Assembly: GCA_017469935.1 (NCBI GenBank)
Contig: JAFUFL010000015.1
Span: 1 to 40,722 of the forward strand
Direction: 5' to 3'
DNA: 40,722 bases
DNA from: Lachnospiraceae bacterium
Lineage (GTDB): Bacteria; Bacillota; Clostridia; Lachnospirales; Lachnospiraceae
The notes under the pieces are model-generated. The model was not told the origin of the DNA and ran no database searches. It saw only the letters and a program-made list of their open reading frames with translations. The first letter of the stretch is position 1; every line of letters begins with the position of its first letter. The position numbers and the translations under genes were made by a program. Below are positions 16,087 to 36,274 of the stretch, in pieces.

Positions 16087-16551
16087 TTGTCACTTAGTAT
16101 GACACAATTCTGGCTGATCGCCATAGCACTGCTTTTGCTTATAGAGTTTGCGACATCGACGCTGACGACGATCTGGTTTGCCGGAGGGTCGCTGCTCGCA
16201 CTCTTGTGCGCAGTGGTGGGCGGACCGGTATGGCTGCAGGTGGCAGTGTTTCTTGTCGGATCCACAGTTCTGTTACTGCTGACAAGGCCCATAGCCGTCA
16301 AAATATTGCACAAAGGGACCGTCGCAACGAATGCGGACAGCCTGATCGGGCAGGAAGCCGTTGTCACACAGAAGATCGACAACCTGCACAGCACGGGAGC
16401 AGTAAAGATCAACGGACAGGAGTGGACGGCCCGCTCTGTTGTCCAGGAGCATGTGATCGACGTAGATGAGGTCGTCATGGTAAGGGCGATCGAGGGCGTC
16501 AAGCTGATCGTGGGAAAACGGATCGACAGCCCGGGTGCTTCTGTGGACTAA
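16087..16551 (+). CDS. NfeD-family membrane protein
   Basis: 154 residues from a TTG start. The N-terminal half holds two to three membrane segments (FWLIAIALLLLIEFATSTLT; IWFAGGSLLALLCAVVGG; LQVAVFLVGSTVLLLL). The C-terminal half is a small beta-barrel (OB-type) domain: LIGQEAVVTQKIDNLHSTGA, VKINGQEWTARS, VIDVDEVVMVRAIEGVKLIV. This is the short NfeD form, which works beside an SPFH/stomatin partner in membrane microdomains; that partner is the next gene. The 3' end with its stop is duplicated downstream. Confidence 0.88.
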   Translation: MSLSMTQFWLIAIALLLLIEFATSTLTTIWFAGGSLLALLCAVVGGPVWLQVAVFLVGSTVLLLLTRPIAVKILHKGTVATNADSLIGQEAVVTQKIDNLHSTGAVKINGQEWTARSVVQEHVIDVDEVVMVRAIEGVKLIVGKRIDSPGASVD

Positions 16552-16632
16552 TGTAACCGGAAAACGGACCGACAGCCCGGGTGCTTCTGTGGACTAATGT
16601 AACCGGAAAACGGATCGGCAGCCCTGAGACGT
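16513..16632 (+). repeat. Tandem 46-base repeat at the nfeD 3' end
   Basis: Copies begin at 16513 and 16559, with a partial third at 16605. The period is exactly 46 bases; copies one and two differ by about one base. Each complete unit contains the last codons of nfeD, its TAA stop and a TGTAACC tail. Confidence 0.93.
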
Positions 16633-16715: not shown

Positions 16716-17660
16716 ATGCCCGGATTTTTTGCAATTGGTTTACTTATCGTAGTTGCACTGTTTATCGCTGTATCCTGCATTAAGATCGTGCCGCAGGCAC
16801 ATGCTTATGTTATTGAGCGCCTGGGCGCTTACAGCGCGACATGGAGCGTAGGCCTGCACTTCAAGGTGCCTTTTATTGAGAGAGTTGCGAGAAGAGTCAA
16901 CCTCAAGGAACAGGTTGTGGACTTCCCGCCCCAGCCCGTTATCACAAAGGATAACGTAACCATGCAGATCGACTCCATCGTCTTCTTCCAGATCACGGAC
17001 GCCAAACTGTTTACATACGGCGTAGAGAATCCGATCATGGCGATCGAGAACCTGACTGCCACCACACTGAGAAACATCATCGGTGACATGGAACTGGATG
17101 AAACACTGACATCCCGTGAGATCATCAACACCAAGATGAGAGCATCTCTGGACGTAGCTACCGACCCTTGGGGCATCAAGGTCACCCGTGTCGAGCTCAA
17201 GAACATCACTCCTCCCACCGCGATCCGCGAGGCAATGGAGAAGCAGATGAAGGCAGAGCGTGAGAGACGTGAGTCCATCCTGAAGGCAGAAGGTGAGAAG
17301 AAGTCGGCCATCCTTGTCGCAGAAGGTAAGAAGGAATCCCTGATCCTGCAGGCGGAAGCTGACAAGAGAGCGACCATCCTCGCAGCAGAAGCGGAGAAAG
17401 AGAAGATGATCCAGGAGGCGGCAGGCCGCAGTGAGGCAATCCGCCAGGTGCAGCAGGCTAACGCAGACGGTATCCGCATGATCCGTGAGGCGGGCGCCGA
17501 CGAAGCCGTTCTCAGAATCAAGAGCCTTGAGGCCTTCACACAGGCGGCGAACGGCAAGGCCACCAAGATCATCATTCCCTCTGAAATTCAGGGAATCGCG
17601 GGTCTGGCCGCATCCGTCAAGGAACTGATCAAGGAAGACGGAACCGCCGGACAGAACTGA
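16716..17660 (+). CDS. SPFH/stomatin-family membrane protein (QmcA-like)
   Basis: 314 residues. One N-terminal membrane segment (FFAIGLLIVVALFIAVSCIK) is followed by the SPFH domain: IVPQAHAYVIERLGAY, GLHFKVPFIERVARRVNLKE, VITKDNVTMQIDSIVFFQI, RNIIGDMELDETLTSRE, GIKVTRVELKNITPP. After that comes a long charged helix with repeating AEGEK/AEADK/AEAEK units (about residues 185-240), an oligomerising coiled coil. The end is a TKIIIPSEIQGIAGLAASVK segment as in QmcA/slipin. It is thought to form membrane-bound scaffolds with the NfeD partner encoded upstream. AGAGGT precedes the ATG. Confidence 0.92.
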   Translation: MPGFFAIGLLIVVALFIAVSCIKIVPQAHAYVIERLGAYSATWSVGLHFKVPFIERVARRVNLKEQVVDFPPQPVITKDNVTMQIDSIVFFQITDAKLFTYGVENPIMAIENLTATTLRNIIGDMELDETLTSREIINTKMRASLDVATDPWGIKVTRVELKNITPPTAIREAMEKQMKAERERRESILKAEGEKKSAILVAEGKKESLILQAEADKRATILAAEAEKEKMIQEAAGRSEAIRQVQQANADGIRMIREAGADEAVLRIKSLEAFTQAANGKATKIIIPSEIQGIAGLAASVKELIKEDGTAGQN

Positions 17661-17754
17661 TCGGGGGTAAAACCACCGGAAAGAACTGATCAGGGAATAA
17701 CGGAACCGCCGGACAGAACTGATCGGGGATAAAAACCACCGGAAAGAACTGATA
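17639..17754 (+). repeat. Compound tandem repeat at the SPFH gene 3' end
   Basis: Four related units of about 31 bases carry the core CACCGGAAAGAACTGAT or CGCCGGACAGAACTGATC, with CCGG-core positions 17644, 17673, 17706 and 17736. Units one and three match each other best, as do two and four, so a 62-base block appears duplicated. The first unit holds the final codons and TGA stop of the SPFH gene. Confidence 0.88.
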
Positions 17755-22204: not shown

Positions 22205-23695
22205 GTGGCACAGAATAATCAGCAGAAAGTACAGGACGTTTCTCAGCTCGAGAAGGTCAGAAGAGAGAAGCTCGCGGAGCTGCAGGCGGCGGGAAAGGAT
22301 CCCTTTCAGATCGTAAAATATGACCAGACTCATCACAGTGCGCAGATCAAGAGTGATTTTGACGAACTGGAAAATGAGACTGTTTCCATCGCCGGCCGCA
22401 TGATGTTCAAGCGCGTCATGGGCAAGGCCTCGTTCTGCAACGTGCAGGACAAGGAAGGCCGCATCCAGGTCTATGTAGCAAGAGATGATCTGGGCGAGGA
22501 GGCCTACAAGGAATTCAAGCGCATGGATATCGGCGATATCATCGGCGTCAAGGGCTTTGTCTTCAAGACCAAGACCGGCGAGATCTCCGTGCATGCCAAG
22601 GAGCTGACACTGCTGTCCAAGTCCCTTTCTCCCCTTCCGGAGAAGTTCCACGGACTGCAGGACGTCGACATGAGATACCGCCAGAGATACGTGGATCTCA
22701 TCATGAACGAGGAGTCCAAGGAGACTTTTATCAAGAGATCCAAGATCATCAGCGAGATCAGGAAATTCCTGGACGGCCGCGGATTCATGGAAGTCGAGAC
22801 CCCTATGCTTGTCTCCAACGCGGGCGGCGCGGCGGCTCGTCCCTTCGAGACGCATTTCAACGCCCTGAACGAGGATGTCAAGCTCCGCATTTCCCTTGAG
22901 CTCTACCTCAAGAGACTGATCATCGGCGGACTTGAGAGAGTCTATGAGATCGGCCGCGTGTTCAGAAATGAAGGCGTAGATACAAGGCACAACCCTGAGT
23001 TTACCCTCATGGAGCTGTACCAGGCTTATACCGACTACTACGGAATGATGGAACTGACCGAGAGCATGTTCCGCTATCTGGCGGAGAAGGTCTGCGGCAC
23101 AACAACCATCGTTTACGGCGACAAGGAAATCGATCTGGGCAAGCCTTTCAGAAAGCTCACCATGATCGACGCCATTAAGGAGCAGACCGGGATCGACTTT
23201 GATCAGGTCGCTACAACGGAGGAAGCTAAGAAGATCGCGGATGAGCATCACGTTGAATACGAGGATCGCCACGTCAAGGGCGATATCGTGAACCTCTTCT
23301 TCGACGAGTTCTGCGAGGACAAGATGATCCAGCCTACTTTCATCATGGATCATCCGATCGAGATCAGCCCGCTGACCAAGAAAAAGCCCGACGATCCGAC
23401 TAAGGTTGAGAGATTCGAGCTCTACATCAACGGCTGGGAGATGTGCAACGCTTATTCCGAGCTCAATGATCCCATCGATCAGAGAGAGAGATTTGCGGCG
23501 CAGGATGCACTGGCGGAGGCCGGTGACGACGAGGCGCAGCACACGGATGAGGATTTCCTGCATGCGATGGAGATCGGTATGCCTCCTACGGGCGGTATCG
23601 GATATGGTATTGACCGTCTTACCATGCTGCTGACTAACAGTGCGGCGATTCGTGATGTATTGCTGTTCCCGACAATGAAGACTGTTAAAGATTGA
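22205..23695 (+). CDS. lysS: Lysyl-tRNA synthetase, class II
   Basis: 496 residues from GTG 22205 with GGAGGAAG 4 bases upstream. The N-terminal OB fold binds the anticodon (VSIAGRMMFKRVMGKASFCN). The class II core shows motif 1 around FLDGRGFMEVETPMLVSNAGG, motif 2 FRNEGVDTRHNPEFTLME and motif 3 GGIGYGIDRLTMLL. It charges tRNA-Lys. It is the last gene of the GC-rich core region; base composition drops right after its stop. No T-box leader is visible in the 75 bases between greA and lysS. Confidence 0.97.
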   Translation: MAQNNQQKVQDVSQLEKVRREKLAELQAAGKDPFQIVKYDQTHHSAQIKSDFDELENETVSIAGRMMFKRVMGKASFCNVQDKEGRIQVYVARDDLGEEAYKEFKRMDIGDIIGVKGFVFKTKTGEISVHAKELTLLSKSLSPLPEKFHGLQDVDMRYRQRYVDLIMNEESKETFIKRSKIISEIRKFLDGRGFMEVETPMLVSNAGGAAARPFETHFNALNEDVKLRISLELYLKRLIIGGLERVYEIGRVFRNEGVDTRHNPEFTLMELYQAYTDYYGMMELTESMFRYLAEKVCGTTTIVYGDKEIDLGKPFRKLTMIDAIKEQTGIDFDQVATTEEAKKIADEHHVEYEDRHVKGDIVNLFFDEFCEDKMIQPTFIMDHPIEISPLTKKKPDDPTKVERFELYINGWEMCNAYSELNDPIDQRERFAAQDALAEAGDDEAQHTDEDFLHAMEIGMPPTGGIGYGIDRLTMLLTNSAAIRDVLLFPTMKTVKD

Positions 23696-23734
23696 TTACA
23701 AGATATAGTGTATCAGAACGGTAACAAACCACTA

Positions 23735-23740
23735 TATAAT
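23735..23740 (+). promoter_or_regulatory. Possible -10 box upstream of the partition operon
   Basis: A perfect TATAAT stands 40 bases after lysS, but no convincing -35 lies 16-18 bases before it, so an activator would be needed if it is real. Confidence 0.35.
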
Positions 23741-23768
23741 GTGTTCGATGAACGACTAAGCTCGGCCG

Positions 23769-23813
23769 GTACATATTTAGTACATAAAAATTTTGCCCTC
23801 ATATTGGTACATA
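23769..23813 (+). repeat. Three GTACATA repeats upstream of parA
   Basis: GTACATA at 23769-23775, 23780-23786 and 23807-23813, between the TATAAT and the leader hairpin. The spacings (11 and 27 bases) suggest protein-binding sites, possibly for autoregulation of the partition operon. Confidence 0.45.
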
Positions 23814-23865
23814 TGGGCTGATACGGATAGAAATCGCATAACGATTGTAGAAGAACACAATCCGC

Positions 23866-23912
23866 AGAGAGATATTTTCCAAAACATATTGGAAGATATC
23901 TCTCTTTATTTT
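23866..23912 (+). terminator. Hairpin plus T-run in the parA leader
   Basis: A 17-bp stem with one G-T pair: AGAGAGATATTTTCCAA (23866-23882) pairs with TTGGAAGATATCTCTCT (23889-23905). Loop of six bases, then TTATTTTTG. It could end lysS transcripts or act as an attenuator in the leader of parA, whose start is about 55 bases further on. Confidence 0.78.
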
Positions 23913-23966
23913 TGCCTTTGTTATTGTCACCCGCAGCCAACAACAGATTTCAGGAAGGAGCAGCAA

Positions 23967-24803
23967 ATGGGCAAAGTAATATGTATAGCAAATCAGAAAG
24001 GCGGTGTCGGCAAGACGACCACATGCGTCAACCTTGGCATTGCTCTTGCTATGGCCGGAAAGAGAGTCTGCCTGATCGACTCAGATCCACAGGGAAGTCT
24101 GACAGAGAGTCTCGGCTATCGCAATCCGGATGAAATGGAAAACACTCTTGCAGATGTATTGAAGGCGGAAATGGAACCTGACGACAAATTGTCGGGAAGT
24201 GACTACGTGGAAGAGCCGGTTTGCGACAATTTGTCGCGAACTCTCGAAAATACAATATTACATCATGTGGAGGGTGTGGACCTGCTCCCCGGCAACATTG
24301 AGCTGGCAGGAGTAGAAGTGTCTATGGTGAATCTGATGAGCCGGGAGCTTTTACTCAAAACGGCGATCAGCAAGATCCGGAACGATTACGACTATATCAT
24401 CATTGACTGCATGCCTTCCCTGGGAATGCTGACGATCAATGCGCTTGCTGCCGCCGATACTGTGATTATACCCGTACAGGCCGCGTATTTGCCGGCTAAA
24501 GGCCTTGAACAGTTTCTGATGACAGTCAGTAAGGTTCGCAGACAGATCAACCGAAAACTCAGAATAGAAGGGATCCTGCTCTCTATGGTCGACTGTCGGA
24601 CAAATTTCGCAAAGGAAATCATTGCACTGATCTACGAGACCTATGGCAGTCATATAAAAATCTTTCAGACACAGATTCCGCTGTCAGTTAGAGCGGCTGA
24701 GTCGAGCGCCTCCGGGATCAGTATTTTTTCACACGACTCAAAGGGAAAGGTTGCGGCAGCGTACCGCGAACTGACGCAGGAGGTCATGAAAGATGGCAGG
24801 TAA
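23967..24803 (+). CDS. parA: ParA-family partition ATPase
   Basis: 278 residues from ATG 23967, with AAGGAGC upstream. The frame is open to the left but that stretch covers the leader hairpin and is not conserved. The deviant Walker A KGGVGKTTT is at residues 11-19, LIDSDPQGSLTESLGY near 38, DYIIIDCMPSLGMLTINALA near 125 and VIIPVQAAYLPAKGLEQFL near 150. This is a Soj/ParA-type ATPase that moves ParB-bound DNA over the nucleoid. Two 13-base palindromes lie inside the gene in a variable segment (residues 72-90). It overlaps parB by 11 bases. Confidence 0.93.
   Translation: MGKVICIANQKGGVGKTTTCVNLGIALAMAGKRVCLIDSDPQGSLTESLGYRNPDEMENTLADVLKAEMEPDDKLSGSDYVEEPVCDNLSRTLENTILHHVEGVDLLPGNIELAGVEVSMVNLMSRELLLKTAISKIRNDYDYIIIDCMPSLGMLTINALAAADTVIIPVQAAYLPAKGLEQFLMTVSKVRRQINRKLRIEGILLSMVDCRTNFAKEIIALIYETYGSHIKIFQTQIPLSVRAAESSASGISIFSHDSKGKVAAAYRELTQEVMKDGR
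24182..24236. repeat. Twin 13-base palindromes inside parA (candidate ParB sites)
   Basis: CGACAAATTGTCG (24182-24194) and CGACAATTTGTCG (24224-24236) are palindromes that differ only in the central base. They sit 42 bases apart start to start, about four helix turns, on the same face of the DNA. The second extends to 15 bases (GCGACAATTTGTCGC). Confidence 0.8.
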
Positions 24804-25683
24804 GGCGACGAAAACAACGAAACCGGACATTAAATTAAACTCATACGAGTCCCTTTTTGGTGACAGGCCTGATTATGGGGAAGCGACAGAGCTGCCCATT
24901 AAGGAGCTGCATGACTATAAGCAGCATCCATTCCGGGTCATTGACGATGAAGACATGCTGGAACTGGTCCAGAGCATCAAAGACAAAGGCATTCTTGTTC
25001 CGCTGACTGTCCGCCCTGTGCCGGAGGGAGACTATGAGATCATCTCCGGCCATAGGAGAAAGCATGCGGCTGAAATTGCCGGTCTCACAACGGTCCCCGC
25101 TATCATTAGGGATCTGTCCGATGAAGATGCGGTGGATATCATGATCTACAGCAATATCCAGCGCACCAATATTTTGCCCAGCGAGAAAGCAAATGCATAC
25201 CGTCTGCAGATGGAAATCATGAAGCACCAGGGAAAGAAGGGCTCTTCGACTCCGAACGAAGTGGGGAAGAAATATGGTGATAATGCGAGAAAAGTGCAGA
25301 GATTAGTACGACTCACATATCTGCTGCCGGAACTGCTGGAACTTGTGGATAGAAAGAAGCTGGCCGTGCATGCAGGCTATTGGATCAGCTTCCTTGGCGA
25401 CACAGAGCAGGAATGTGTTTTAAAAGCATATCAGCTCTATGGAAAGCTGCCGTCCGGCAGCGCCGCGCAGCATCTAAGGGAGCAGTATGAGGATCATGTG
25501 CTTACAAAGGACAAAATCGAGGAGCTGATACTCGGTGAGAGTCCCAGAAGAAGAGTGATTCTGAAGATGAGTCGGATCAACAGAATCTTTTCACCGGACT
25601 ATGATTCCGAGCAGATTGAGGAAATCATTTATCGACTCCTGGAACACTGGAGCGAAGAGAAGGGGCAGGAACAGTCAGAATAA
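24793..25683 (+). CDS. parB: ParB-family partition protein
   Basis: 296 residues. The N-terminal ParB/Spo0J domain has ELPIKELHDYKQHPFRVIDD, MLELVQSIKDKGILVPLTVR and ISGHRRKHAAEIAGLTTVPA, where GHRRKHA replaces the common GERRxRA CTP-binding box. YSNIQRTNILPSEKANAYRL follows, then a central helix-turn-helix region (KYGDNARKVQRLVRLTYLLP). ParB binds centromere-like sites and, with ParA, segregates the replicon. It overlaps parA, the hallmark of a par operon. The stop abuts the first ATG of repA. Confidence 0.9.
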   Translation: MAGKATKTTKPDIKLNSYESLFGDRPDYGEATELPIKELHDYKQHPFRVIDDEDMLELVQSIKDKGILVPLTVRPVPEGDYEIISGHRRKHAAEIAGLTTVPAIIRDLSDEDAVDIMIYSNIQRTNILPSEKANAYRLQMEIMKHQGKKGSSTPNEVGKKYGDNARKVQRLVRLTYLLPELLELVDRKKLAVHAGYWISFLGDTEQECVLKAYQLYGKLPSGSAAQHLREQYEDHVLTKDKIEELILGESPRRRVILKMSRINRIFSPDYDSEQIEEIIYRLLEHWSEEKGQEQSE

Positions 25684-25701
25684 ATGATGAAAGGTAATAC
25701 C

Positions 25702-26763
25702 ATGAGTCAGACAGCAGTATTTGATTATTATTACGGCATGCAGGCTGAGGCATACAGCTTTTATCGAATCCCGAAGGTTCTGTTTTCAGATCCTTTCTTC
25801 AAGAAAGTTTCCTGCGAAGCTAAGGTACTTTATGGCCTTATGTTGGACCGTATGTCCTTGTCTGTGAAGAATAAGTGGTTCGATGATCAGGGGCGCGTCT
25901 ACATCAATTTCACAATAGAAGATGCCTGTGAGCTGCTTGGCTGCTGCAGACAGACTGCTGTCAAGCTTATGGCGGAGCTGGATACACAGAAGGGTATAGG
26001 GCTGATTGAGAAGAAACGACTCGGCCTTGGGAAGGCAAATATCATTTATGTCAAGAACTTCCTGCTCAGGGAAGAAGGCTCTGAATGCCCTGAAAAGCAC
26101 TTAAATACACAGAAGTCCAAAAATCATACTTCTGGAAGTCCAAAAAACAGAATTCAGGAAGTCCAGAAATCAGACTTCAGGAAATCTAAGAATCATACTT
26201 CAAGAAGTTCAAAACCCATAACTCAAGAAGTCTATAAAACAGACGGAAATAATAATGATAAGAGTAATACTGATTCTAACGAGACGAAAGAGAATGAGAC
26301 AATCATATCTGATCTATCGATCCGGGACAGAAGGAAGAGATTCGGCGTGAAGGAATCGGTCAACTACTATGCATATCAGAGTTTGATCAAGGAAAACATT
26401 GATTACGACACATTATGCAGGACACATCCGGTTGAAAACGTAGAGGGAATCGTCTCATTGATGACAGATACCGTGTGTTCTTCGCGTCATGAAATCAGGA
26501 TCGGAGGAGATAATAAGCCTGCAGCTGTTGTAAAGAGCAGGCTTCTTGGGCTGGACTATTCACATATCGAATATGTAATGGAGTGCATGAACAAGAACAC
26601 TACAAAGATCCATGATATCAAGCAGTACCTGCTCACAGCTTTATACAACGCACCGACTACTATCGGACACTATTATTCGGCTGAGGCGAATTACGATCTG
26701 TACGGGGCAGTAAAAGTGCCCGAGGAAGAGAAAGAGGACGATGAATATGCGGCACCAAACTGA
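25702..26763 (+). CDS. repA: RepA_N-family replication initiator protein
   Basis: 353 residues from ATG 25702, which has AAAGGT 8 bases upstream; ATGs at 25684 and 25687 are alternatives. The N-terminal about 120 residues match the RepA_N DNA-binding domain: EAYSFYRIPKVLFSDPFFKK, SCEAKVLYGLMLDRMSLS, FTIEDACELLGCCRQTAVKL and KANIIYVKNF. The middle is a hydrophilic Ser/Asn/Lys stretch encoded by six 23-base DNA repeats. The C-terminal part (YYAYQSLIKENIDYDTLCRT; CMNKNTTKIHDIKQYLLTALY) is typical of initiators from Clostridia plasmids and conjugative elements. It follows parB directly, forming a par-rep operon on an element next to chromosomal lysS. Confidence 0.88.
   Translation: MSQTAVFDYYYGMQAEAYSFYRIPKVLFSDPFFKKVSCEAKVLYGLMLDRMSLSVKNKWFDDQGRVYINFTIEDACELLGCCRQTAVKLMAELDTQKGIGLIEKKRLGLGKANIIYVKNFLLREEGSECPEKHLNTQKSKNHTSGSPKNRIQEVQKSDFRKSKNHTSRSSKPITQEVYKTDGNNNDKSNTDSNETKENETIISDLSIRDRRKRFGVKESVNYYAYQSLIKENIDYDTLCRTHPVENVEGIVSLMTDTVCSSRHEIRIGGDNKPAAVVKSRLLGLDYSHIEYVMECMNKNTTKIHDIKQYLLTALYNAPTTIGHYYSAEANYDLYGAVKVPEEEKEDDEYAAPN
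26112..26249 (+). repeat. Six tandem 23-base iterons inside repA (candidate replication origin)
   Basis: Units begin at 26112, 26135, 26158, 26181, 26204 and 26227, a strict 23-base period. The first three begin GAAGTCCA and the rest are variants. Most units read GAAGTC at the start and ACTTC or near variants at the end, forming a small inverted repeat in each. Because 23 is not a multiple of three, the protein repeats only every third unit (KSKNHTS recurs 69 bases apart), so the repeat is kept at DNA level. Confidence 0.92.
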
Positions 26764-26814: not shown

Positions 26815-27291
26815 ATGAGCAAAGCAGAAGAAATGAAACTTGAAAGAAAAAAGAGAAAAGATGCCGTTGACAAAATGACTGCGGTTGTCTTTACAGAGAT
26901 TCAAAAACGGCTCAGAAAATGTCAGAACATAGTTGGCATAACGATCCAGACAGGACCCAATGGGCACCACCGGTATTTTACGGTCAGGCAGTATAAAGAA
27001 AAGGTGGCCATCAATATTTACAACGACGGCAATGTGGATGCCGTGCTGGAAGAAATGGTTTATGGAGAGGTCAGCATTCCGCTTATCCGGTATAAGGAAG
27101 TGAATGACATCGACGGTGCGATCATACAGCTGAAGGACTACGTATCGGTCTTTTTCAAGGCACTCCTCGAAGGAGGCATGCACGAGTTCCTTGCTTTCAT
27201 AAGCGGATGTGACATTGAAAGTGAATGGAAGGCAGCTTATGGCAGTTATATAGAGTACCTTGCAGAATGCAGAAGACATAGACGAACCTGA
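26815..27291 (+). CDS. Hypothetical protein of the par-rep operon
   Basis: 158 residues, not recognised. A lysine-rich N-terminal helix (EEMKLERKKRKDAVDKMTAV) is followed by a mixed alpha/beta segment with TIQTGPNGHHRYFTVRQYKE, NIYNDGNVDAVLEEMVYGEV and FLAFISGCDIESEWKAAYGS. No signal peptide or membrane segment. AGGAGGAGACACAACAAG lies before the ATG (GGAGG 12 bases upstream). It sits 51 bases after repA and probably belongs to the same transcript. Confidence 0.65.
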   Translation: MSKAEEMKLERKKRKDAVDKMTAVVFTEIQKRLRKCQNIVGITIQTGPNGHHRYFTVRQYKEKVAINIYNDGNVDAVLEEMVYGEVSIPLIRYKEVNDIDGAIIQLKDYVSVFFKALLEGGMHEFLAFISGCDIESEWKAAYGSYIEYLAECRRHRRT

Positions 27292-28320: not shown

Positions 28321-29313
28321 ATGCCCAGAAACAGGAACAGCCTGAAATATGAATTAAAAAGACTTGCTTTACAGAATACAGAAAACGAAAAGAACAACCG
28401 CACAAGAGTGATGTACAAGCGCTGCATCAATCAATTCACGGCTTGGGCAAAAGAGAGAAATTGTAAATATGTGGAAGACATCACAAAGGACATGATCCAG
28501 GAATACGAAGAATTCTTGGAAGAGCACCCAAAGTCCTATTCGGCGGCAACGATCCACACTTACCTGGCACCGATCTGTGTTGCTGCCGGTGTTCCGATGG
28601 AGGAAATCAGAAAGCCGAAGAGATTATCCGGAAATATTTCCCGCAGCCGACGTGCCAACAAGATACGCTTGAAGGAAAAGAATCTTCAGGGATTACAAGA
28701 GGAGAATAATCCAAAATATGCCCGCGTGGTAGCTCTTGAGAAAGCTGCGGGAATCCGACGGGCGGAGCTTGCAAAGCTGTGCGGGGAGGACCTGGACTTT
28801 CGTGACGGTGACTGCTTCATCGTTGTCCGGCGCGGTAAGGGCGGAAAAAGACAGGAGCAATATATACTTCCTCAAGACGTCGATATAGTACGCGCAATCT
28901 TCCAAAGTGTCGGAGCTGAAGAAAAAGTGTTCTCGAAAGAGGAGATGAACAACAAAATCGACTTTCACGGCATGAGAGCAGCGCATGCCAGAAGGTGCTA
29001 CGAGTATTATGTGGAGCGAATTGAAACAGATCAGAGTTTTGCATTTGACATGAGAATCAAATTGATGGAGCGCTGGCTTGAAGCGCATGAAACATTATGC
29101 TTTTCGGATAGAAGAACATGGTCACGGCAGAGGAGCCTTTTCGAGCAGGAAATGGATTATCGCCCTTATAAACTGCGCGGGGACAATCTGTCCAAAGCGT
29201 TGGCATCCGGATCACCGACAGAGTATAACCGCCTGGCGCTGATGTGCGTGTCGGTGCTGCATTTGTCTCACTGGAGGCTGGATGTTACGGTGACGAATTA
29301 TGTTGTGATGTGA
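28321..29313 (+). CDS. Tyrosine recombinase/integrase
   Basis: 330 residues. A SAM-like N-terminal DNA-binding domain (MYKRCINQFTAWAKE, ITKDMIQEYEEFLEE) precedes the catalytic domain. Active-site residues can be placed: Arg146 in AAGIRRAEL, Lys176 in RRGKGGKRQ, His216/Arg219 in DFHGMRAAHARR, His317 in LHLSHWRLDV and the nucleophile Tyr327 in TVTNYV. About 95 residues separate the H-x-x-R motif from the last histidine, longer than in most integrases. AAGGGGGAGAAG precedes the ATG. It probably mediates integration, excision or dimer resolution of the element carrying parA-parB-repA. Confidence 0.83.
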   Translation: MPRNRNSLKYELKRLALQNTENEKNNRTRVMYKRCINQFTAWAKERNCKYVEDITKDMIQEYEEFLEEHPKSYSAATIHTYLAPICVAAGVPMEEIRKPKRLSGNISRSRRANKIRLKEKNLQGLQEENNPKYARVVALEKAAGIRRAELAKLCGEDLDFRDGDCFIVVRRGKGGKRQEQYILPQDVDIVRAIFQSVGAEEKVFSKEEMNNKIDFHGMRAAHARRCYEYYVERIETDQSFAFDMRIKLMERWLEAHETLCFSDRRTWSRQRSLFEQEMDYRPYKLRGDNLSKALASGSPTEYNRLALMCVSVLHLSHWRLDVTVTNYVVM

Positions 29314-29697: not shown

Positions 29698-31365
29698 GTG
29701 GAAGTGCCGTTCTTCCAGCGCTCTTATGTTTGGAAAGAAGACTTGTGGGCGCGTCTTCTGGAAGACATGGAATATGTAGTTAAAGCGAGAAAACCACACT
29801 TTTTGGGATCCATCATTTTAAAAGAAGGCCGGAAGCCAGTCATCGGCGATAATTTTTCTGCCTGCAAAACAGTTGTTGATGGGCAGCAGCGACTTACTAC
29901 CTTTTTGATTTTCCTTAAGGTCCTTTGTATGAAGCTGAATCAAACGGTAATGTTTGATTATCAGTTCAGGATTATGGGGCAGTCTATTGCACTTCGGCAT
30001 GGGAAAAATGACATAGATGCTTTTGAAAAAGTTATGGCAACTACAAGTGCGGAGATGATAGAAAATCCCGCACCGGGCTCTAGGATAATCGAGGCATTCA
30101 ACTATTTTGTTAAGAATATTGTTGAAACAAAACTGGATATAATGACAATTCTCATGAATACTCAGTTTGTTCAAATTGACCTTGATGCAGATGAGGATGA
30201 ACAGCAGATTTTTGATACCATTAATTCTCTTGGAGTAAATTTGACTACATCGGAACTGCTGAAGAACTATTTCTTCAGTAGAGAAACGGTTAACGAATAC
30301 GAAAAACGCTGGGAAGCTGTATTTGAGAAGGATGAAGAGACCAGAACCTACTGGGATACAGAAATCGAAGCCGGACGAGTTAAAAGAGCTTTGATCGACA
30401 TCTTCTTTGACTCCTATTTTCAAATCTTTATTCAAGACAAGCAGTACAGTATATCAAATGAAGATAAGATCATGTATGCAAGGGTTGATAAGCTCGCACT
30501 TTCTTACCAGCACTTCATCAACAAATACTGCAAGGGGGATAAGAATAAAGTTCTTGGTCCAATGAAAGACTATGCATTTTGTTTTATGCAAACATTCAAA
30601 CCGGATTATTGTGCCCAGAATACCCCATCCAACTTTGGCATAGAGCGCCTCAACATTGTCATTTTCGGTTTGAAAACTACAACGCTGATTCCATACGTTC
30701 TGTATGTGGCAAAAAACGTATTTGATGAAAACGAGCGCAACAAGATTTATGGAATTCTTGAAAGTTATATAATGCGTCGCATTGTTATACATGCAACTAC
30801 AAAGAACTATAATAATTTGTTTATTTCATTGATTCTCAATACCGTGCTTGATGCTGACGGATTGATTGCACGTTTAAAGAGCAATAATGATGCAACAACG
30901 TTTATTCCCTCTGATGAGGAATTAAAGTCTGGATTTGAGAAATCGAAACTTGTGAATCTTCATTCCAGGGGAATAATCTATTTAATCGAAAGTAGAGAGC
31001 GCCCCGAGCATAGCTCAACAGCGTTGCTTGGCTTTGACAATTACAGCTTAGAGCATTTAATGCCAAAAAAATGGAGAAACAACTGGCCCGCATGTGCGAC
31101 GGAAGAAGAAGCAGCTAACAGAGACTCGATGCTTTTGACACTTGGAAACCTTGCAATTATTCCTCAATCTTTGAATGCTTCTATAAGGGATGCAAATTGG
31201 AAAATAAAAAAAGAAGGTAAGGGAAAGAAGCCCGGACTGGCTATCTGTGCAGCAGGACTAATAACGATGTACGATGTTTTACAGAAAGGTGATTGGACGG
31301 AAGATGATATTCAAGCCAGAGCAGAGACACTCTATAGTCAAGCAGCATCTATTTGGTCTCTCTAA
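29698..31365 (+). CDS. DUF262/DUF1524 (GmrSD-type) protein, 5' end frameshifted
   Basis: 555 residues in the main frame. The N-terminal DUF262 domain has VPFFQRSYVWKEDLWARLLE and the signature VVDGQQRLTTFLIFLKVL (DGQQR near residues 61-65), which in GmrS/BrxU-like proteins binds and hydrolyses nucleotide. A C-terminal DUF1524 region carries SLEHLMPKKWRNNWP near residue 450, an HNH-type nuclease motif; TLGNLAIIPQSLN follows as usual. Such proteins are type IV-like restriction enzymes against modified phage DNA or parts of larger defence systems. The ribosome site and first 17 codons lie one frame away (29646-29697). From GTG 29698 alone there is no ribosome site, so expression may be lost or need frameshifting. 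Confidence 0.82.
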   Translation: MEVPFFQRSYVWKEDLWARLLEDMEYVVKARKPHFLGSIILKEGRKPVIGDNFSACKTVVDGQQRLTTFLIFLKVLCMKLNQTVMFDYQFRIMGQSIALRHGKNDIDAFEKVMATTSAEMIENPAPGSRIIEAFNYFVKNIVETKLDIMTILMNTQFVQIDLDADEDEQQIFDTINSLGVNLTTSELLKNYFFSRETVNEYEKRWEAVFEKDEETRTYWDTEIEAGRVKRALIDIFFDSYFQIFIQDKQYSISNEDKIMYARVDKLALSYQHFINKYCKGDKNKVLGPMKDYAFCFMQTFKPDYCAQNTPSNFGIERLNIVIFGLKTTTLIPYVLYVAKNVFDENERNKIYGILESYIMRRIVIHATTKNYNNLFISLILNTVLDADGLIARLKSNNDATTFIPSDEELKSGFEKSKLVNLHSRGIIYLIESRERPEHSSTALLGFDNYSLEHLMPKKWRNNWPACATEEEAANRDSMLLTLGNLAIIPQSLNASIRDANWKIKKEGKGKKPGLAICAAGLITMYDVLQKGDWTEDDIQARAETLYSQAASIWSL

Positions 31366-31419
31366 GGCCTAAGAGACACGTGGCATTCTTGTTGATTATA
31401 CGGACACTGGGGGAAGAAG

Positions 31420-34400
31420 ATGGTAGTAAACGATTTGAAATTTTTTACGAACGAACCTGAGCGCGATTTGTATAGTCGCTTTTCTAAGATTCTTAAGAGC
31501 AACACACAGTTCTTTGATATACTTGTTGGATATTTCAGGACGAGTGGCTTTTTTAAGCTATACCCGGCAATGGAAGACGTCGAGAAAATTCGAATTCTTG
31601 TAGGCCTTAATGTCGATAAGAAGACAGTAGATATTATTGACATTGCAGATCAGCTTACTCTGAAGGAGGCACGTGAGAAGTTCGCGAAGGGTGTTGAAGA
31701 AGAATTTGAGAAAACAGAAACATCTTCGAAAGTGGAACAGGGTGTTTATAAATTCATTGAGTGGCTGAAGTCTGGCAAAATGGAAATGCGTATGTACGTG
31801 GATGCACCAATTCATGCAAAAGTGTACATTATGCGCAAAGATCAGAATAAGGCTGATTATTATGGAAGTGTTATCACCGGCTCCAGTAATTTTTCGGAAG
31901 CAGGTCTTCAAAATAACCTTGAATTCAATGTTGAGCTTAAGGACAGCGCTGATGTTAAATTTGCATTAGGACGCTTTGAAGAGCTTTGGAAAGACGGTAT
32001 TCCGATTCAAGACGCTTATGTTGATGCGATTGAAAAGAAAACCTGGCTAAGAAACGATATAACACCTTATGAAATATACCTAAAGACACTGTACGAATTC
32101 TTCCGTGAAGAGATAAATGCCGATAAAGATGTCTTGGCAAATAACCTCCTTCCCCCAGGGTATATGCAGCTGCAATACCAGCTCGATGCGGTGGTTCAAG
32201 CAAAAAAGGTGCTTCAGGCTTATAATGGCGTTTTTATTTCAGATGTCGTAGGTCTTGGAAAAACATATATCTGCGCTATGTTAGCGAAGAGTCTCGGCAA
32301 GGGCAAGAAGCTGATTATCTGTCCTCCGGTTCTGGTTTCCTACTGGGAAGAAGTCCTTTTGGAATTTGACGTGTCTGCAAAGGTTGTGTCATTGGGAAAA
32401 CTGGATAGCGTAATTGGCGGCAGAATTGATTACGAATATGTTTTTGTCGATGAAGCACATCGCTTCCGCAATGCCGGGACAGATAGTTTTAGCAAGCTGC
32501 ATGAAATCTGCTATGGGAAGAAGGTGGTCCTGGTTTCAGCAACTCCCATCAACAATTATACAAGCGACATTGAAAATCAGATATATCTGTTTCAGCCGAA
32601 GCATAATAGCAACATTGTTGGAGTAAAAAACCTTGAAGGTTTCTTCGCATCCCTTAACGGCAAGCTGAAGGGGCTTGAAAAAGGGTCGGCTGACTATATG
32701 GATCAGATTCGGAAAAACTCTGAGGAAATTCGCGATAGGTTGCTCCGGCACATCATGATCCGTAGAACAAGAACTGAGATTCAACAGTATTATCGTGATG
32801 ATCTCGAGCGTCAAGGGCTTACATTCCCTAAGCTTGGTGCTCCTGAGAAAATTATTTATGAATTTGATGAAGTAACAGATAGTATCTTTACAGAAACCAT
32901 TGCCGCCATCAAAGATTTTACTTATGCAAGATATAAGCCACTGACATATCTCAAGGATACAAAGCAGTTCGCACAACAACTGACCGCTCAGCATAACATG
33001 GGCGGATTTATGAAAGGAATTCTTGTAAAGCGGCTGGAAAGTAGTTTCTATGCGTTTCGTATGACGCTGTCAAGATTCATCGATTCTTATCAGCGATTTA
33101 TCGACATGCTCAATAACGTGGGTGAAGTCTGGATTAGTAAGAAAGTAAATGTATATGATCTTTTGGATGCGGGTGAAATAGACCAGCTTATGAAAATGGT
33201 AGAAGAGGAGAACGGATACCATTTTAAGAAGTCGGACTTTAAATCAAGTTTTATTATTGACTTGAATAAAGATTTGTCAAAACTAAAATATCTAAGGGAT
33301 TTATGGGAATCGATTACAATTGATCCCAAATTTGACACTTTTGTTGACGAACTTGAGAACAATAAAAAGCTCCTCGGAAATAAAAAGATCATATTCACAG
33401 AATCAAAAGAAACTGCTGAATACCTGGAGACTAAATTGCGCCCGATTTATGGTAAGCGGGTAGTCGCTTATTCCGGAATGAGCGGCGCAAAACTAAAAGC
33501 TGACATAGAGGATAGTTTTAATCCGAAGTATGCTAATAAAGAAAACGACAGGTACGATGTCCTTATCACTACAGATGTGCTGGCAGAGGGTATCAACCTG
33601 CATCGTTCGAATGCACTGATCAATTATGATCTGCCCTGGAACCCCACAAGGATAATGCAGCGTGTCGGCCGCATTAATCGTGTCGGGACAGAGCACCAGC
33701 AAATTTATGTTTTTAACTTTTTCCCAACAGCTCAGTCCAACAAACATATGCCACTAAAAGATCGTATTCTTGAGAAGCTTCAATCCTTCCATGATACGCT
33801 GGGAGAGGACTATAAATACTTATCCGATGAAGAAGTTGTGAGTTCACAGAAATTGTTCGAGGATCTGACTTCCAGCCTGGACCAGGAGGAAGAGAGTACC
33901 AGTCCGGAACTGGCATATTTGGCTGTGATCAGGCAAATCAGAGATAACGATAAGGCGTTATTTGAGCGGATCAAGAGACTTCCTAAGAAATCTAAGACCG
34001 GCAGATACAGTAATCGCGTTAAAAAAGCGGCAACAATCACATTTATCCGGAAGGGTGCCCTAAAGGACTTCTTTATTACCGGGGAAAAGACTGAGCAGAT
34101 ATCTTTTATGGATGCTGTCAGGTATTTGGAGTGCGAGCCGGATGAGCAGCGCATAAATGTGGGAACCAACTACTATAGTCACTATGATGCAAACAATGCA
34201 GCATTCGATGAAGCCTTAACTGAGGAAGACGTGATAGAAGTTGGAAAGGCGCCCCTTCGAGGCAATGATCTGAAAGTTGTCCGAATTCTACGCGCAATGA
34301 AAAATGAGCCTACTCTTACTGAAGATCAGGAAGAAGTACTTTCTAGATTGATTAAGGCATACGAAAACGGTGATATTCCGCAGAATATAACAAAGAATAT

Positions 34401-34566
34401 TGTTAAGGAACTGAAGAATATGGATGATCTTGGAACGGCTTACTTTACAATTACCAACCTTGTTCCAGATCAGTACCTTTATGAGAGAAAGGACGCCATT
34501 CTTCACACAGTTGGAGAAAAACAAGTAATTTTGTCCTGCTACCTGAAGGAGAAAACAAATGAATGA
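31420..34566 (+). CDS. PLD-nuclease/SNF2-helicase fusion, anti-phage type
   Basis: 1,048 residues. Residues 1-190 form a phospholipase D-like domain with one HxK motif (IHAKVYI, 132-134) and GSSNFSEAGLQNNLEF (154-169), as in PLD nucleases that dimerise to cut DNA. Residues 240-800 are a SNF2-type superfamily 2 ATPase: DVVGLGKTYICAM (Walker A 278-282), VFVDEAHRFRN (DEAH 344-347), LVSATPINN, then ITTDVLAEGINLHRSNAL and MQRVGRINRVGT of the second lobe. The C-terminal about 200 residues are unassigned. GGGGGAAGAAG precedes the ATG. It overlaps the methyltransferase gene by 8 bases. The layout suggests a translocating nuclease guided by the partner methylase. Confidence 0.85.
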   Translation: MVVNDLKFFTNEPERDLYSRFSKILKSNTQFFDILVGYFRTSGFFKLYPAMEDVEKIRILVGLNVDKKTVDIIDIADQLTLKEAREKFAKGVEEEFEKTETSSKVEQGVYKFIEWLKSGKMEMRMYVDAPIHAKVYIMRKDQNKADYYGSVITGSSNFSEAGLQNNLEFNVELKDSADVKFALGRFEELWKDGIPIQDAYVDAIEKKTWLRNDITPYEIYLKTLYEFFREEINADKDVLANNLLPPGYMQLQYQLDAVVQAKKVLQAYNGVFISDVVGLGKTYICAMLAKSLGKGKKLIICPPVLVSYWEEVLLEFDVSAKVVSLGKLDSVIGGRIDYEYVFVDEAHRFRNAGTDSFSKLHEICYGKKVVLVSATPINNYTSDIENQIYLFQPKHNSNIVGVKNLEGFFASLNGKLKGLEKGSADYMDQIRKNSEEIRDRLLRHIMIRRTRTEIQQYYRDDLERQGLTFPKLGAPEKIIYEFDEVTDSIFTETIAAIKDFTYARYKPLTYLKDTKQFAQQLTAQHNMGGFMKGILVKRLESSFYAFRMTLSRFIDSYQRFIDMLNNVGEVWISKKVNVYDLLDAGEIDQLMKMVEEENGYHFKKSDFKSSFIIDLNKDLSKLKYLRDLWESITIDPKFDTFVDELENNKKLLGNKKIIFTESKETAEYLETKLRPIYGKRVVAYSGMSGAKLKADIEDSFNPKYANKENDRYDVLITTDVLAEGINLHRSNALINYDLPWNPTRIMQRVGRINRVGTEHQQIYVFNFFPTAQSNKHMPLKDRILEKLQSFHDTLGEDYKYLSDEEVVSSQKLFEDLTSSLDQEEESTSPELAYLAVIRQIRDNDKALFERIKRLPKKSKTGRYSNRVKKAATITFIRKGALKDFFITGEKTEQISFMDAVRYLECEPDEQRINVGTNYYSHYDANNAAFDEALTEEDVIEVGKAPLRGNDLKVVRILRAMKNEPTLTEDQEEVLSRLIKAYENGDIPQNITKNIVKELKNMDDLGTAYFTITNLVPDQYLYERKDAILHTVGEKQVILSCYLKEKTNE

Positions 34567-36274
34567 GCAAAAGCGTAAAATATTTGAGGCGACATTAACA
34601 GAGGCTTTTGACCATGATCGTTATGTGCAATTTCTCAGAGAGTTGCTGGATAACATGCGGCTCGTAGCGCCTAATCGCGAAGTGAAGCCTTGGAATACTT
34701 TCTCTGCGGCGGTTGATCATTATCGACATATCGGAAACTATATTGGAGAAGATAATAATAAGGTTGCTCTCTTTTCTGTATGCTTGAAGAATGATAAGAA
34801 TCTTGAAAATGCAAGAAGCATGCAAAGAGCGTTTGTAAAAACGCTTTTGGAGAGCGGTGATTGCGCCGGTGCACTGGTGGCTTTTTATACAAGTGGAGAG
34901 TTGGATAAATGGCGTCTATCCTTAGTCAGAATGGATTACGAATTCTCGAAAGGAAAGCTTAGCGAGAAGCTTACTCCTGCAAAGAGATTTTCGTATCTGG
35001 TCGGTAAGGGTGAGCCCTGCCATACTGCACAGGAACGACTTTATCCGATTTTTGTTGAGGATAATGCTGACCCGAGCCTTGACGAGCTAGAAGAAGCCTT
35101 CAGCGTTGAAGCGGTAACGAAAGATTTCTTTGACCAATATCGCGAGAAATACCTGGTTCTGAAGGAATATTTGGATCAGACTCCGGAATTTACGGCGGAA
35201 GCGGAATCCAGAGGATTTGACAGCGAGCAGTTTGCCAAAAAGCTTATGGGCCAGATTGTATTTCTGTATTTCATACAGAAAAAAGGGTGGCTTGGAGTAA
35301 ATGCTTTCCCTTTTAAACTGACGGAACGACAGTATAAAGACGGGTTTTATAAAACCGGGCGAAAGCCAAAAGAGCTGATGCCGTATGTGTATAAGCTGGC
35401 GAAGGATGGTAATTATTATCGTGACAACAACGCTCTGCTATCACTTTCGCCTGAAGACGAGACAGTTTTATCAACCTTAGTAAAAGGAGATGCATGGGGA
35501 AGTGGTCCCAAAAATTTCATGCGTCAGATTTTTGATGCTTGCGAAAAGGCAGGACGTAACTATTTTGACGACTGCCTTGAGCCACTTTTCTATACCGGAC
35601 TGAATCAGAACAGGGGTGAGAATGCATTTTTCCCTCCGCTTCACAGAAGAATTCCGTTCTTGAATGGTGGCTTATTTGAGGAAATGGAGGGTTATGACTG
35701 GAAAAACAATGATTTCAGTATACCCAATTCGTTATTTTCTAATGCAGATGAAAAGGGGAAAAGGGATGCCGATGGTATTCTTGATGTTTTTGATCGGTAT
35801 AACTTCACAATGGCTGAGGATGAGCCGATGGAACGAGAAGTTGCTATTGATCCTGAGATGCTCGGAAAGGTCTTCGAAAATCTATTGGATGTTACTGACA
35901 GAAAATCAAAGGGGGCATTCTATACGCCGCGTGAAATTGTCCATTATATGTGTCAGGAGAGCCTAATAAACTATCTGAGCGGCAGGACGGGTATTCCTGA
36001 AGAAGATATCCGTAAATTCGTTCTTTATGGAGAATACTTCCGGGATGAAGATACTAGGAAAACAATATTCGTAAAGGGCGAAAACGGAAGCAAAGGGCAC
36101 ATGGAATTCGATAAAGAAAAAGCATTCGAGATTCCAGAGACTATCTTTAGCTACAAGAAAAATGTGAATAGACTTCAAGAGATTGATAATTACCTTGCAA
36201 ACGTTAAAGTTGCAGAAAGCAAGACGCAAAATTTGATACAAATTAACGATTGCCCTCTCAGGGGTGTCGCATAG
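34559..36274 (+). pseudogene. Type IIG-like restriction/methyltransferase, truncated before SAM motif I
   Basis: 571 residues; relatives run to about 1,000 or more. The N-terminal region (REVKPWNTFSAAVDHYRHI, KVALFSVCLKNDKNLENARS, DKWRLSLVRMDYEF) and the helical middle (KLMGQIVFLYFIQKKGWLGV; FLNGGLFEEMEGYDW; DPEMLGKVFENLL) match Eco57I/PglX-like enzymes. KGAFYTPREIVHYM (451-464) is the segment that normally leads to the SAM-binding motif. In relatives ANVKVA is followed at once by DPAxGSG; here it runs into ESKTQNLIQ and stops after 19 residues. Motif I and the catalytic NPPY are therefore missing and not found downstream. As it stands it cannot methylate DNA. Confidence 0.8.

What the first reader, a model, noticed from the sequence alone, without database searches (positions are those of the whole stretch)
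26112..26249. Six 23-bp iterons hidden inside the repA coding sequence
Six units with a strict 23-base period lie in the variable middle of repA. 23 is not a multiple of three, so the peptide does not repeat from unit to unit while the DNA does; selection must act on DNA. Most units contain a short inverted repeat (GAAGT...ACTTC). Origins inside the rep gene are known for RepA_N plasmids, so this is probably the replication origin of the element next to lysS, still recognisable at six copies.
Basis: partly seen in the sequence, partly recalled or inferred. Interest (0 to 1): 0.7.

Follow-up and report, generated by a model that had tools for sequence, protein, structure and literature searches.

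The report
Origin-like repeats inside a repA gene
A plasmid-type replication gene in the genome of a bacterium related to rumen and gut Lachnospiraceae carries, inside its own coding sequence, six DNA repeats that its own protein probably binds to start copying the DNA; well-studied plasmids are built the same way, so this is a clear new example rather than a new kind of thing.

Summary
Six units with a strict 23-bp period lie at 26112-26249 inside repA, with 73% self-match at lag 23, reached by 0 of 2000 shuffles. They lie in the predicted disordered linker between the RepA_N DNA-binding domain and the DUF6017 domain.

In the segment DNA identity (75-83%) exceeds peptide identity (58-67%); [quoted passage not shown] Of 127 distinct RepA_N domains collected, 79 carry a strong 23-bp array (0 of 2460 shuffled linkers score as high at any period), four plasmid genes among them. 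The consensus unit is a near-dyad, two 9-bp arms converging on AAA. Arm bases covary with the RepA_N recognition helix and not with the rest of the domain.

Best explanation: RepA-binding iterons of an in-gene theta origin, as in pSK41-type RepA_N plasmids, followed by a conserved AT-rich stretch that may be where the DNA opens. Binding and replication were not tested.

A new member of a known kind. Possible extras: the readable helix-iteron correspondence and the 17-, 22- and 24-bp spacing classes.

The parts
26112..26249 (+). Array of six 23-bp iterons (units at 26112, 26135, 26158, 26181, 26204, 26227); family consensus is a near-dyad of two 9-bp arms around AAA plus 2 bp; probable RepA-binding sites of an in-gene origin
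   Evidence: array, chance test; phase versus codon test; family-wide array, dyad and covariation; only match in the genome
26248..26286 (+). AT-rich stretch directly after the array (AAT AAT AAT GAT AAG AGT AAT ACT GAT ...), window version of the conserved AATAATACTGAT-type run; candidate DNA-unwinding region (inference)
   Evidence: in the 60 nt after the array, 71 of 82 Thr codons are ACT (16% ACT in the domains), mean GC 0.295, over 30 loci including the window (not dereplicated)
25684..26763 (+). repA (likely true start 25702, judged from relatives), RepA_N + linker + DUF6017
25756..25980 (+). RepA_N DNA-binding domain (Pfam match aa 25-99), winged helix; matches the solved Rep-DNA complex 5kbj
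25945..25980 (+). Recognition helix (aa 88-99, CRQTAVKLMAEL); its first residues covary with the iteron bases
26362..26700 (+). DUF6017 C-terminal domain (aa 227-339), mostly helical in the model
23967..24803 (+). parA partition ATPase gene (start inferred from the MGKVICIANQKGG N-terminus)
24793..25683 (+). parB partition gene
26815..27291 (+). 158-aa ORF without a Pfam match, conserved in L001 (59% identity)
28321..29313 (+). tyrosine recombinase-like gene, conserved in L001 (65% identity); candidate integrase of the element
22205..23695 (+). lysS, the neighbour; its 3' side is a recurrent position of par-rep modules

Best explanation
The six units are RepA-binding iterons that form the core of a theta-type replication origin lying inside the repA coding sequence. 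A RepA dimer would read each near-dyad through its winged-helix recognition helices, with the A-tract in the middle. RepA assembled on the array would help open the neighbouring AT-rich stretch, and the C-terminal domain would recruit the host primosome. The linker peptide is predicted disordered, so the DNA there is free to serve as the origin. Inferred: binding, opening, primosome recruitment and use in this host. Shown by computation: the array, DNA-level constraint on it, family-wide conservation of period and dyad, and covariation of iteron bases with the recognition helix.
For: Array far above chance. In seven close orthologues, 23-bp phase explains variability (R2 0.31, reached by 9 of 5000 permutations) and codon position does not (R2 0.02, reached by 1303 of 5000). 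Iteron DNA identity 75-83% exceeds its peptide identity 58-67% (six relatives); the RepA_N domain shows 77-79% DNA and 82-91% peptide (five of those six; L002 not computed). Against L001, dS is 0.19 in the segment and 1.4-3.3 in the measurable flanking parts; against L003, 0.51 and 3.2-4.5. Period 23 at z>3 in 30 of 54 linkers and as best array of score 18 or more in 79 of 127 distinct RepA_N domains, a score reached by 0 of 2460 shuffled linkers; 4 of 6 plasmid rep genes fetched have it. Dyad arms covary between loci, 0 of 5000 re-dealt controls. R89, T91, C88, Q90 and V93 rank highest for information on iteron bases; nearest neighbour by the helix predicts 65% of nine variable positions, the rest of the domain 49%, random 49%. 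A distant blastn of the par-rep region matched two staphylococcal-family plasmids only at window 26167-26274, iterons plus AT-rich stretch (73% identity, E 1e-6). Linker pLDDT below 50 at residues 128-215.
Against: No binding or replication data exist for this RepA. Of the 127 distinct domains, 8 have no array of score 12 or more and 11 have a best period of 15 or 30 bp. One of six plasmid rep genes (L146, Lacticaseibacillus) has no 23-bp array and one (L145) only a weak one. The phase test rests on seven sequences, two of them near-identical (L087, L088), and all relatives share ancestry, so its permutations and those are not strict probabilities. The C-terminal domain found no significant structural match, so a DnaD-like role is not confirmed. 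In the integrated state the array may be unused.
Confidence: 0.86

Rival explanations
1. The repeats are RepA-binding sites that serve regulation (autorepression, handcuffing, incompatibility) and the true origin lies elsewhere.
For: Covariation with the recognition helix speaks for recognition at most, not initiation. In Rep_3 replicons iterons also control copy number (PMC5703833, passages).
Against: The array has no second match in the genome, it is followed by a conserved AT-rich run, and in pSK41 the in-gene boxes correspond to the origin (PMC5703833, section 14).
Confidence: 0.12
2. Relic: the array was an origin, but in this integrated copy it is no longer used and persists only because the insertion is recent.
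For: Units 5 and 6 depart from the consensus. The close relative L001 has parA split over two frames. No second att copy was found and no transfer gene among 14 window proteins scanned.
Against: repA, parB and the recombinase are open and have dN/dS 0.03-0.16 where measurable (the 158-aa ORF and recombinase against L001 only). Orphan repA copies elsewhere (L087, L088) keep all six units in register.
Confidence: 0.2
3. The repeats act in the repA mRNA as a row of hairpins controlling translation or decay.
For: Each unit is an imperfect inverted repeat.
Against: Within loci, departures from the dyad are uncompensated in 270 cases and compensated in 11; changes in the arms go with the protein helix instead. 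In the window's own consensus unit pairs 6 to 8 of the dyad do not pair. No RNA folding was run.
Confidence: 0.04
4. The repeat is a peptide-level linker repeat.
For: SKNHTS recurs every third unit.
Against: Period 23 is not a multiple of three, peptide identity is lower than DNA identity, and codon position does not explain variability. The linker is predicted disordered.
Confidence: 0.01

Closest known systems
RepA_N theta plasmids of the pSK41 / pTZ2162 type (staphylococci)
   Same: RepA_N winged-helix N-terminus (37% identity over the aligned part to 4pql); array centrally within the rep gene, in a linker (PMC5703833, section 14); near-palindromic direct repeats converging on a poly-A tract (PMC7145576 passages). 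Of the two Staphylococcus plasmid rep genes fetched here, L147 shows a 23-bp array; in L145 the 23-bp signal is weak.
   Different: C-terminal domain is DUF6017 by Pfam; six units instead of the four Rep boxes of pSK41; found in an assembled contig next to lysS, not on a plasmid; antisense-RNA control was not looked for.
RepA_N modules of ICEs (Tn5252, Tn1549, TnGBS families)
   Same: A RepA_N gene, with ParA in some of these families, in an integrated element; the lysS 3' end is a known ICE target in streptococci (PMC4701971, passages).
   Different: No relaxase or type IV secretion gene among the 14 window proteins scanned; no att pair found.
Monoglobus pectinilyticus 518-kb circular plasmid (NZ_OY725736.1) repA
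   Same: RepA_N-type repA next to parB, with 5.3 copies of a 23-bp array in the linker; 41% protein identity.
   Different: Extrachromosomal replicon; different arm sequence (consensus GAATCGTGAAAATCACGAGTC).

Membership tests
RepA_N in-gene theta origin (pSK41 type) | RepA_N domain in the initiator | tested here: met
   Pfam PF06970 8e-30; PDB phmmer 4pta 3.2e-20; Foldseek 4pql, 4pt7, 5kbj, 4pta
RepA_N in-gene theta origin (pSK41 type) | Tandem boxes centrally within the rep gene | tested here: met
   26112-26249 between the two domains
RepA_N in-gene theta origin (pSK41 type) | Boxes near-palindromic, converging on a poly-A tract | tested here: met
   Family consensus; individual window units are imperfect
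RepA_N in-gene theta origin (pSK41 type) | Array region encodes a dispensable linker | tested here: inconclusive
   Predicted disordered, pLDDT below 50 at residues 128-215; dispensability needs an experiment
RepA_N in-gene theta origin (pSK41 type) | N-terminal domain binds the boxes | not testable with these tools
   Indirect support only: covariation with the recognition helix
RepA_N in-gene theta origin (pSK41 type) | C-terminal domain resembles DnaD and contacts DnaG | tested here: inconclusive
   C-terminal domain is modelled with fair to high confidence but has no PDB match at E 0.001 or better; DnaG contact not testable
RepA_N in-gene theta origin (pSK41 type) | Autonomous replication from the segment | not testable with these tools
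   Needs a minireplicon
Integrative element at the lysS 3' end | Position next to lysS shared with other elements | tested here: met
   10 of 80 fetched loci; 9 of 32 other genomes with a lysS match, out of 38 others searched; 5 other genomes of the genus
Integrative element at the lysS 3' end | Site-specific recombinase gene | tested here: met
   28321-29313, Pfam Phage_int_SAM_5 and weak NCBIfam Xer matches; conserved in L001. That it acts at lysS is not shown
Integrative element at the lysS 3' end | att direct repeats at both ends | tested here: not met
   No second copy of the lysS 3' end in the contig or genome; the contig ends at 40722, so the far end may be missing
Integrative element at the lysS 3' end | Conjugation genes (needed to call it an ICE) | tested here: not met
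   None among 14 window proteins scanned with Pfam, 11 of them downstream of repA; smaller ORFs were not scanned

The most novel reading that the evidence does not exclude
Across the RepA_N family the initiator and the origin inside its own gene form one co-evolving unit with a readable correspondence: recognition-helix residues 88-93 set the arm bases, the protein clade goes with the spacing (23 bp for most, 17 bp in one Lachnospiraceae group with a shorter wing, 22 or 24 bp in others), and a 15-bp AT-rich repeat after the array is a second, in-gene DNA element (the unwinding site) kept by DNA-level selection. That would let incompatibility groups be predicted from the rep gene alone, in plasmids and in integrated elements.
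Probability: 0.45. Interest if true: 0.55.

Novelty: new member of a known kind. Interest (0 to 1): 0.36.

Why it matters
It shows that a par-rep module sitting beside a chromosomal gene keeps a plasmid-type origin under DNA-level selection inside a gene that is also under protein selection. The site and the reader of the site are in one gene, so the family is a natural data set for protein-DNA specificity. The helix-iteron correspondence makes compatibility between RepA_N elements directly testable.

Tried and rejected
RNA hairpins: rejected because departures from the dyad inside a locus are not compensated (11 compensated against 270 uncompensated). Peptide repeat: rejected by the DNA-over-peptide conservation. 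A second array elsewhere in the genome: no match. Far att site: not found. A C-terminal match to DnaD: not found. The first codon test of the AT-rich stretch was partly circular because the region was chosen by motifs, several of which contain ACT; it was replaced by a test anchored at the array end. The period-15 signal in many linkers appears, from the sequences printed, to be this in-frame AT-rich run and not the iterons. A literal lysS 3'-end insertion boundary for the window was considered and left open: a terminator-like sequence lies between lysS and parA in the window and also downstream of lysS in L098, L099 and L102, in which no parA was found (the L098 and L099 stretches end about 0.8 and 0.2 kb after lysS).

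Rows dropped before counts; 54 linkers kept, i.e. 53 relatives whose ORF has at least 300 aa out of the 80 fetched, plus the window. ORFs under 150 aa and matches covering less than about 85 residues of the domain were dropped, and so were the duplicate or lysS loci L081, L083, L084, L086 and L097-L133; 148 ORFs were kept, with 127 distinct domains; 77 of the 79 arrays were kept (two whose rotated consensus did not start with GA were dropped); 37 of the 87 period-23 domains and 2 of the 10 period-17 domains could not be parsed; linkers of 123 of the 127 were long enough to be shuffled, 20 times each; a best score of 12 or more came up in 111 of 2460 shuffles and 18 or more in none, so single arrays scored 12-17, among them 9 of the 10 with best period 17, are not individually safe.

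No claim is made that the helix-iteron correspondence or the spacing classes are absent from print. The literature searches were made; most subscription papers are not in the library, and one recalled primary paper on the pSK41 initiator was not held. PMC8129170 was looked at by passages and not used.

Full report
OBSERVATION. The window is the whole of contig C9 (40722 bp) of a genome of 111 contigs. Inside repA (25684-26763; the likely true start is 25702) six units with a 23-bp period run from 26112 to 26249. Self-match at lag 23 is 73%. The best of 1000 shuffles of the gene reached 48.7% and the best of 2000 shuffles of the local 250 bp 51.3%, at any period from 10 to 60. A search of the whole genome with the 138 bp found no other match.

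WHERE IT LIES. RepA has a RepA_N domain (aa 25-99, 8e-30) and a DUF6017 domain (aa 227-339, 1.2e-39). The array encodes part of the linker between them. In an AlphaFold2 model built from an alignment of 28 sequences, residues 128-215 of the 353-residue form have pLDDT below 50, while the 10-residue means are mostly 79-94 in the two domains; overall mean pLDDT is 69.5 and pTM 0.42. The array covers about residues 137-183 of that form. The only Foldseek matches at E 0.001 or better are eight RepA_N N-terminal chains, among them the Rep-DNA complex 5kbj. parA and parB precede repA. A 158-aa ORF and a tyrosine recombinase-like gene follow.

DNA OR PEPTIDE. Seven close orthologues keep all six units in register (window, L001, L002, L003, L004, L087, L088). 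Site variability is explained by 23-bp phase (R2 0.31; 9 of 5000 permutations as good) and not by codon position (R2 0.02; 1303 of 5000). The usual third-position excess is seen in the RepA_N domain (mean entropy 0.19, 0.09, 0.88 by codon position) and nearly vanishes in the iterons (0.34, 0.27, 0.44, same six sequences, L002 left out). Against the window, iteron DNA is 75-83% identical but its peptide only 58-67% (six relatives); the domain is 77-79% in DNA and 82-91% in peptide (five relatives). Against L001, dS in the segment is 0.19, compared with 1.4 in parB, 1.8 in the 158-aa ORF, 2.0 in the recombinase and 3.3 in the C-terminal domain, and is not measurable for the N-terminal domain. 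Against L003 it is 0.51, compared with 4.5 in parB and 3.2 in the N-terminal domain, and is not measurable for the C-terminal domain. dN/dS is 1.0 and 0.42 in the segment and 0.03-0.16 elsewhere. The limits are the small number of sequences, their shared ancestry and the near-identity of L087 and L088.

THE FAMILY. One scan of genome contigs returned 80 loci (92 relatives were confirmed, the best 80 kept). In the 54 full-length linkers (53 relatives and the window), period 23 has z above 3 in 30 and period 17 in 17. With more loci taken from whole genomes and six plasmid rep genes, 148 RepA ORFs gave 127 distinct N-terminal domains. Their best array of score 18 or more has period 23 in 79, 15 in 7, 24 in 6, 22 in 2, and 17 and 30 in 1 each. 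At score 12 or more the numbers are 87 (23 bp), 10 (17), 10 (15), 9 (24), 2 (22) and 1 (30), and 8 have none. In 2460 shuffles of 123 of these linkers a score of 18 never came up and 12 came up in 4.5%, so the 17-bp class rests mainly on the z values and the units printed. In 24 loci whose best open frame is little more than the N-terminal domain (L055-L080 without L065 and L067; 123-195 aa), no array was found inside the frame, the best scores being 7.4-11.4 on the slightly stricter scale. Of the six plasmid rep genes, four show a clear 23-bp array (Monoglobus, Anaerococcus, Aerococcus, S. epidermidis), S. equorum a weak one and Lacticaseibacillus none. A distant blastn of the par-rep region against plasmids matched 16 records; in two of them (a Mammaliicoccus and a Staphylococcus plasmid) the only aligned part is window 26167-26274, the end of the array and the AT-rich stretch (73% identity, E 1e-6).

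FORM OF THE UNIT. In 27 dereplicated 23-bp loci the consensus unit is a 21-bp dyad, two 9-bp arms around AAA, plus 2 bp. Complementarity is 0.80 on the dyad, at most 0.37 when slid by 1 to 6 bases, and 0.68 on average (0.75 at most) when arms are re-dealt among loci, 0 of 5000 as high as observed. Within loci, departures from the dyad are uncompensated in 270 cases and compensated in 11. So the arms change together between loci but not unit by unit, as expected for a site read by a protein dimer and not for RNA hairpins. The dyad is not perfect everywhere: pair 6 is complementary in 56% of the 27 loci, and in the window's consensus pairs 6 to 8 are not. Published RepA_N iterons are described in the same terms: semi-palindromic direct repeats converging on a poly-A tract, with 9-bp and 8-bp repeats for pTZ2162 and pSK41 (PMC7145576, passages).

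READER AND SITE. In a first set of 28 dereplicated loci, iteron similarity correlated with N-terminal-domain identity (r 0.60) and, given the C-terminal domain, still 0.47 (0 of 2000 permutations); with the C-terminal domain given the N-terminal it was 0.09. In 77 arrays (effective number about 42) the columns that stand out most from a shuffled control for information on nine variable iteron positions are R89, T91, C88, Q90 and V93, all at or next to the start of the recognition helix. The nearest neighbour by residues 88-99, among sequences under 75% identical, predicts 65% of those positions; the rest of the domain predicts 49%, equal to random neighbours; among 12-residue windows tried along the domain the best are those starting at 81, 84 and 87. 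The shuffles do not keep ancestry; the identity limit is the control for that. This is the strongest computational sign that RepA reads the array. It is not a binding assay.

A SECOND DNA ELEMENT. In the 60 nt after the array of 30 loci (not dereplicated; three, L048-L050, lack the run), 71 of 82 threonine codons are ACT, against 16% in the domains (52% inside the iterons); asparagine and aspartate also lean to AAT and GAT; mean GC is 0.295. The run is AATAATACTGAT-like with a 15-bp period, and similar sequence follows the array in the S. equorum and S. epidermidis plasmid genes. An AT-rich repeat beside iterons suggests the unwinding site; this is inference.

ELEMENT. lysS lies upstream of parA-parB-repA on the same strand, within about 0.3-1.5 kb of parA, in 10 of the 80 fetched loci, some with a repA only 37-41% identical; L021 has lysS before repA-parA-parB. 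In a sample of the family in which every listed genome is of a different genus, 58 of 150 genomes have a repA match. The window's genome and 38 others with a match were then searched for lysS; 33 gave a match, and 9 of the 32 others have repA within about 3 kb on the same contig, a lower bound because one search lists only part of its matches. Some of these genomes are the same as. In the genus, 19 of 61 genomes have a repA match and 50 of 61 a lysS match; five others have the two adjacent, while G173 and G194 have repA on another contig than lysS with no parA or parB nearby. lysS tails differ after a conserved ...LLFPT(M/L)K, and L106 and L107 hold extra copies of the lysS 3' end about 1 kb downstream, as expected of an integration site. 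The lysS 3' end is a known ICE target in streptococci (PMC4701971, passages). For the window itself no second att copy was found and no transfer gene among 14 proteins scanned, so I call it an integrated par-rep element of unresolved type.

VERDICT. RepA-binding iterons of an in-gene theta origin, confidence 0.86; whether still used in this integrated copy is open. Known design (PMC5703833 section 14), hence a new member of a known kind.

Noticed in passing
window 23600-23965; L098-L126, L138: The 3' side of lysS is a recurrent insertion place. lysS C-terminal tails differ after LLFPT(M/L)K, a relative without the element has a 650-aa lysS with a C-terminal tRNA_bind domain (L138), and L106/L107 carry extra copies of the lysS 3' end about 1 kb downstream.
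   Followed up: partly
G000 C44, L085:7809-8720 (minus): The same genome has a second RepA_N gene whose linker carries six in-frame 24-bp repeats, so there the peptide repeats too.
   Followed up: partly
L022-L024, L026, L027, L031-L036, L038, L041-L044, L046, L047, L052: A Lachnospiraceae group of RepA shows a 17-bp period, mostly with an ACCRGT-like core; in the 10 distinct domains with best period 17 the wing is one residue shorter in all 8 that could be parsed, against 1 of 50 parsed for period 23.
   Followed up: partly
L055-L064, L066, L068-L080: Open frames of 123-195 aa that are little more than a RepA_N domain, with no array inside the frame; function unknown.
   Followed up: no
window 29698-36274: Defence-like cargo after the recombinase: a GmrSD-type protein, an HKD+Snf2-type helicase and a 571-aa piece matching type IIG restriction-methylase models of about 1150 aa. 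In the related island L136 the same position holds BREX genes brxA, brxB, brxC and the start of pglX.
   Followed up: partly
L136:5313-6100 (same as L001:2325-3112): parA of the closest lysS-adjacent relative is split over two frames, while its repA array is intact.
   Followed up: no
L087, L088 (G173, G194; wider stretches L135, L134): Orphan repA genes about 72% identical, on other contigs than lysS and without parA or parB nearby, still with six units in register.
   Followed up: partly
window 16513-16624 and 17622-17753: Two near-perfect tandem duplications (46-bp and about 62-bp units) at the ends of two neighbouring ORFs.
   Followed up: no
window 40063-40455: The contig ends next to a minus-strand ORF that looks like the coiled-coil end of a serine recombinase (recalled resemblance; Pfam gave only weak unrelated matches).
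   Followed up: no
window 23696-23830: About 115 bp between lysS and a terminator-like sequence, with TACAT repeats and an ACCACTATATAATGTG inverted repeat, is shared with L100 and L104 and absent from L098, L099 and L102 (read by eye); possible att or parS remnant.
   Followed up: no
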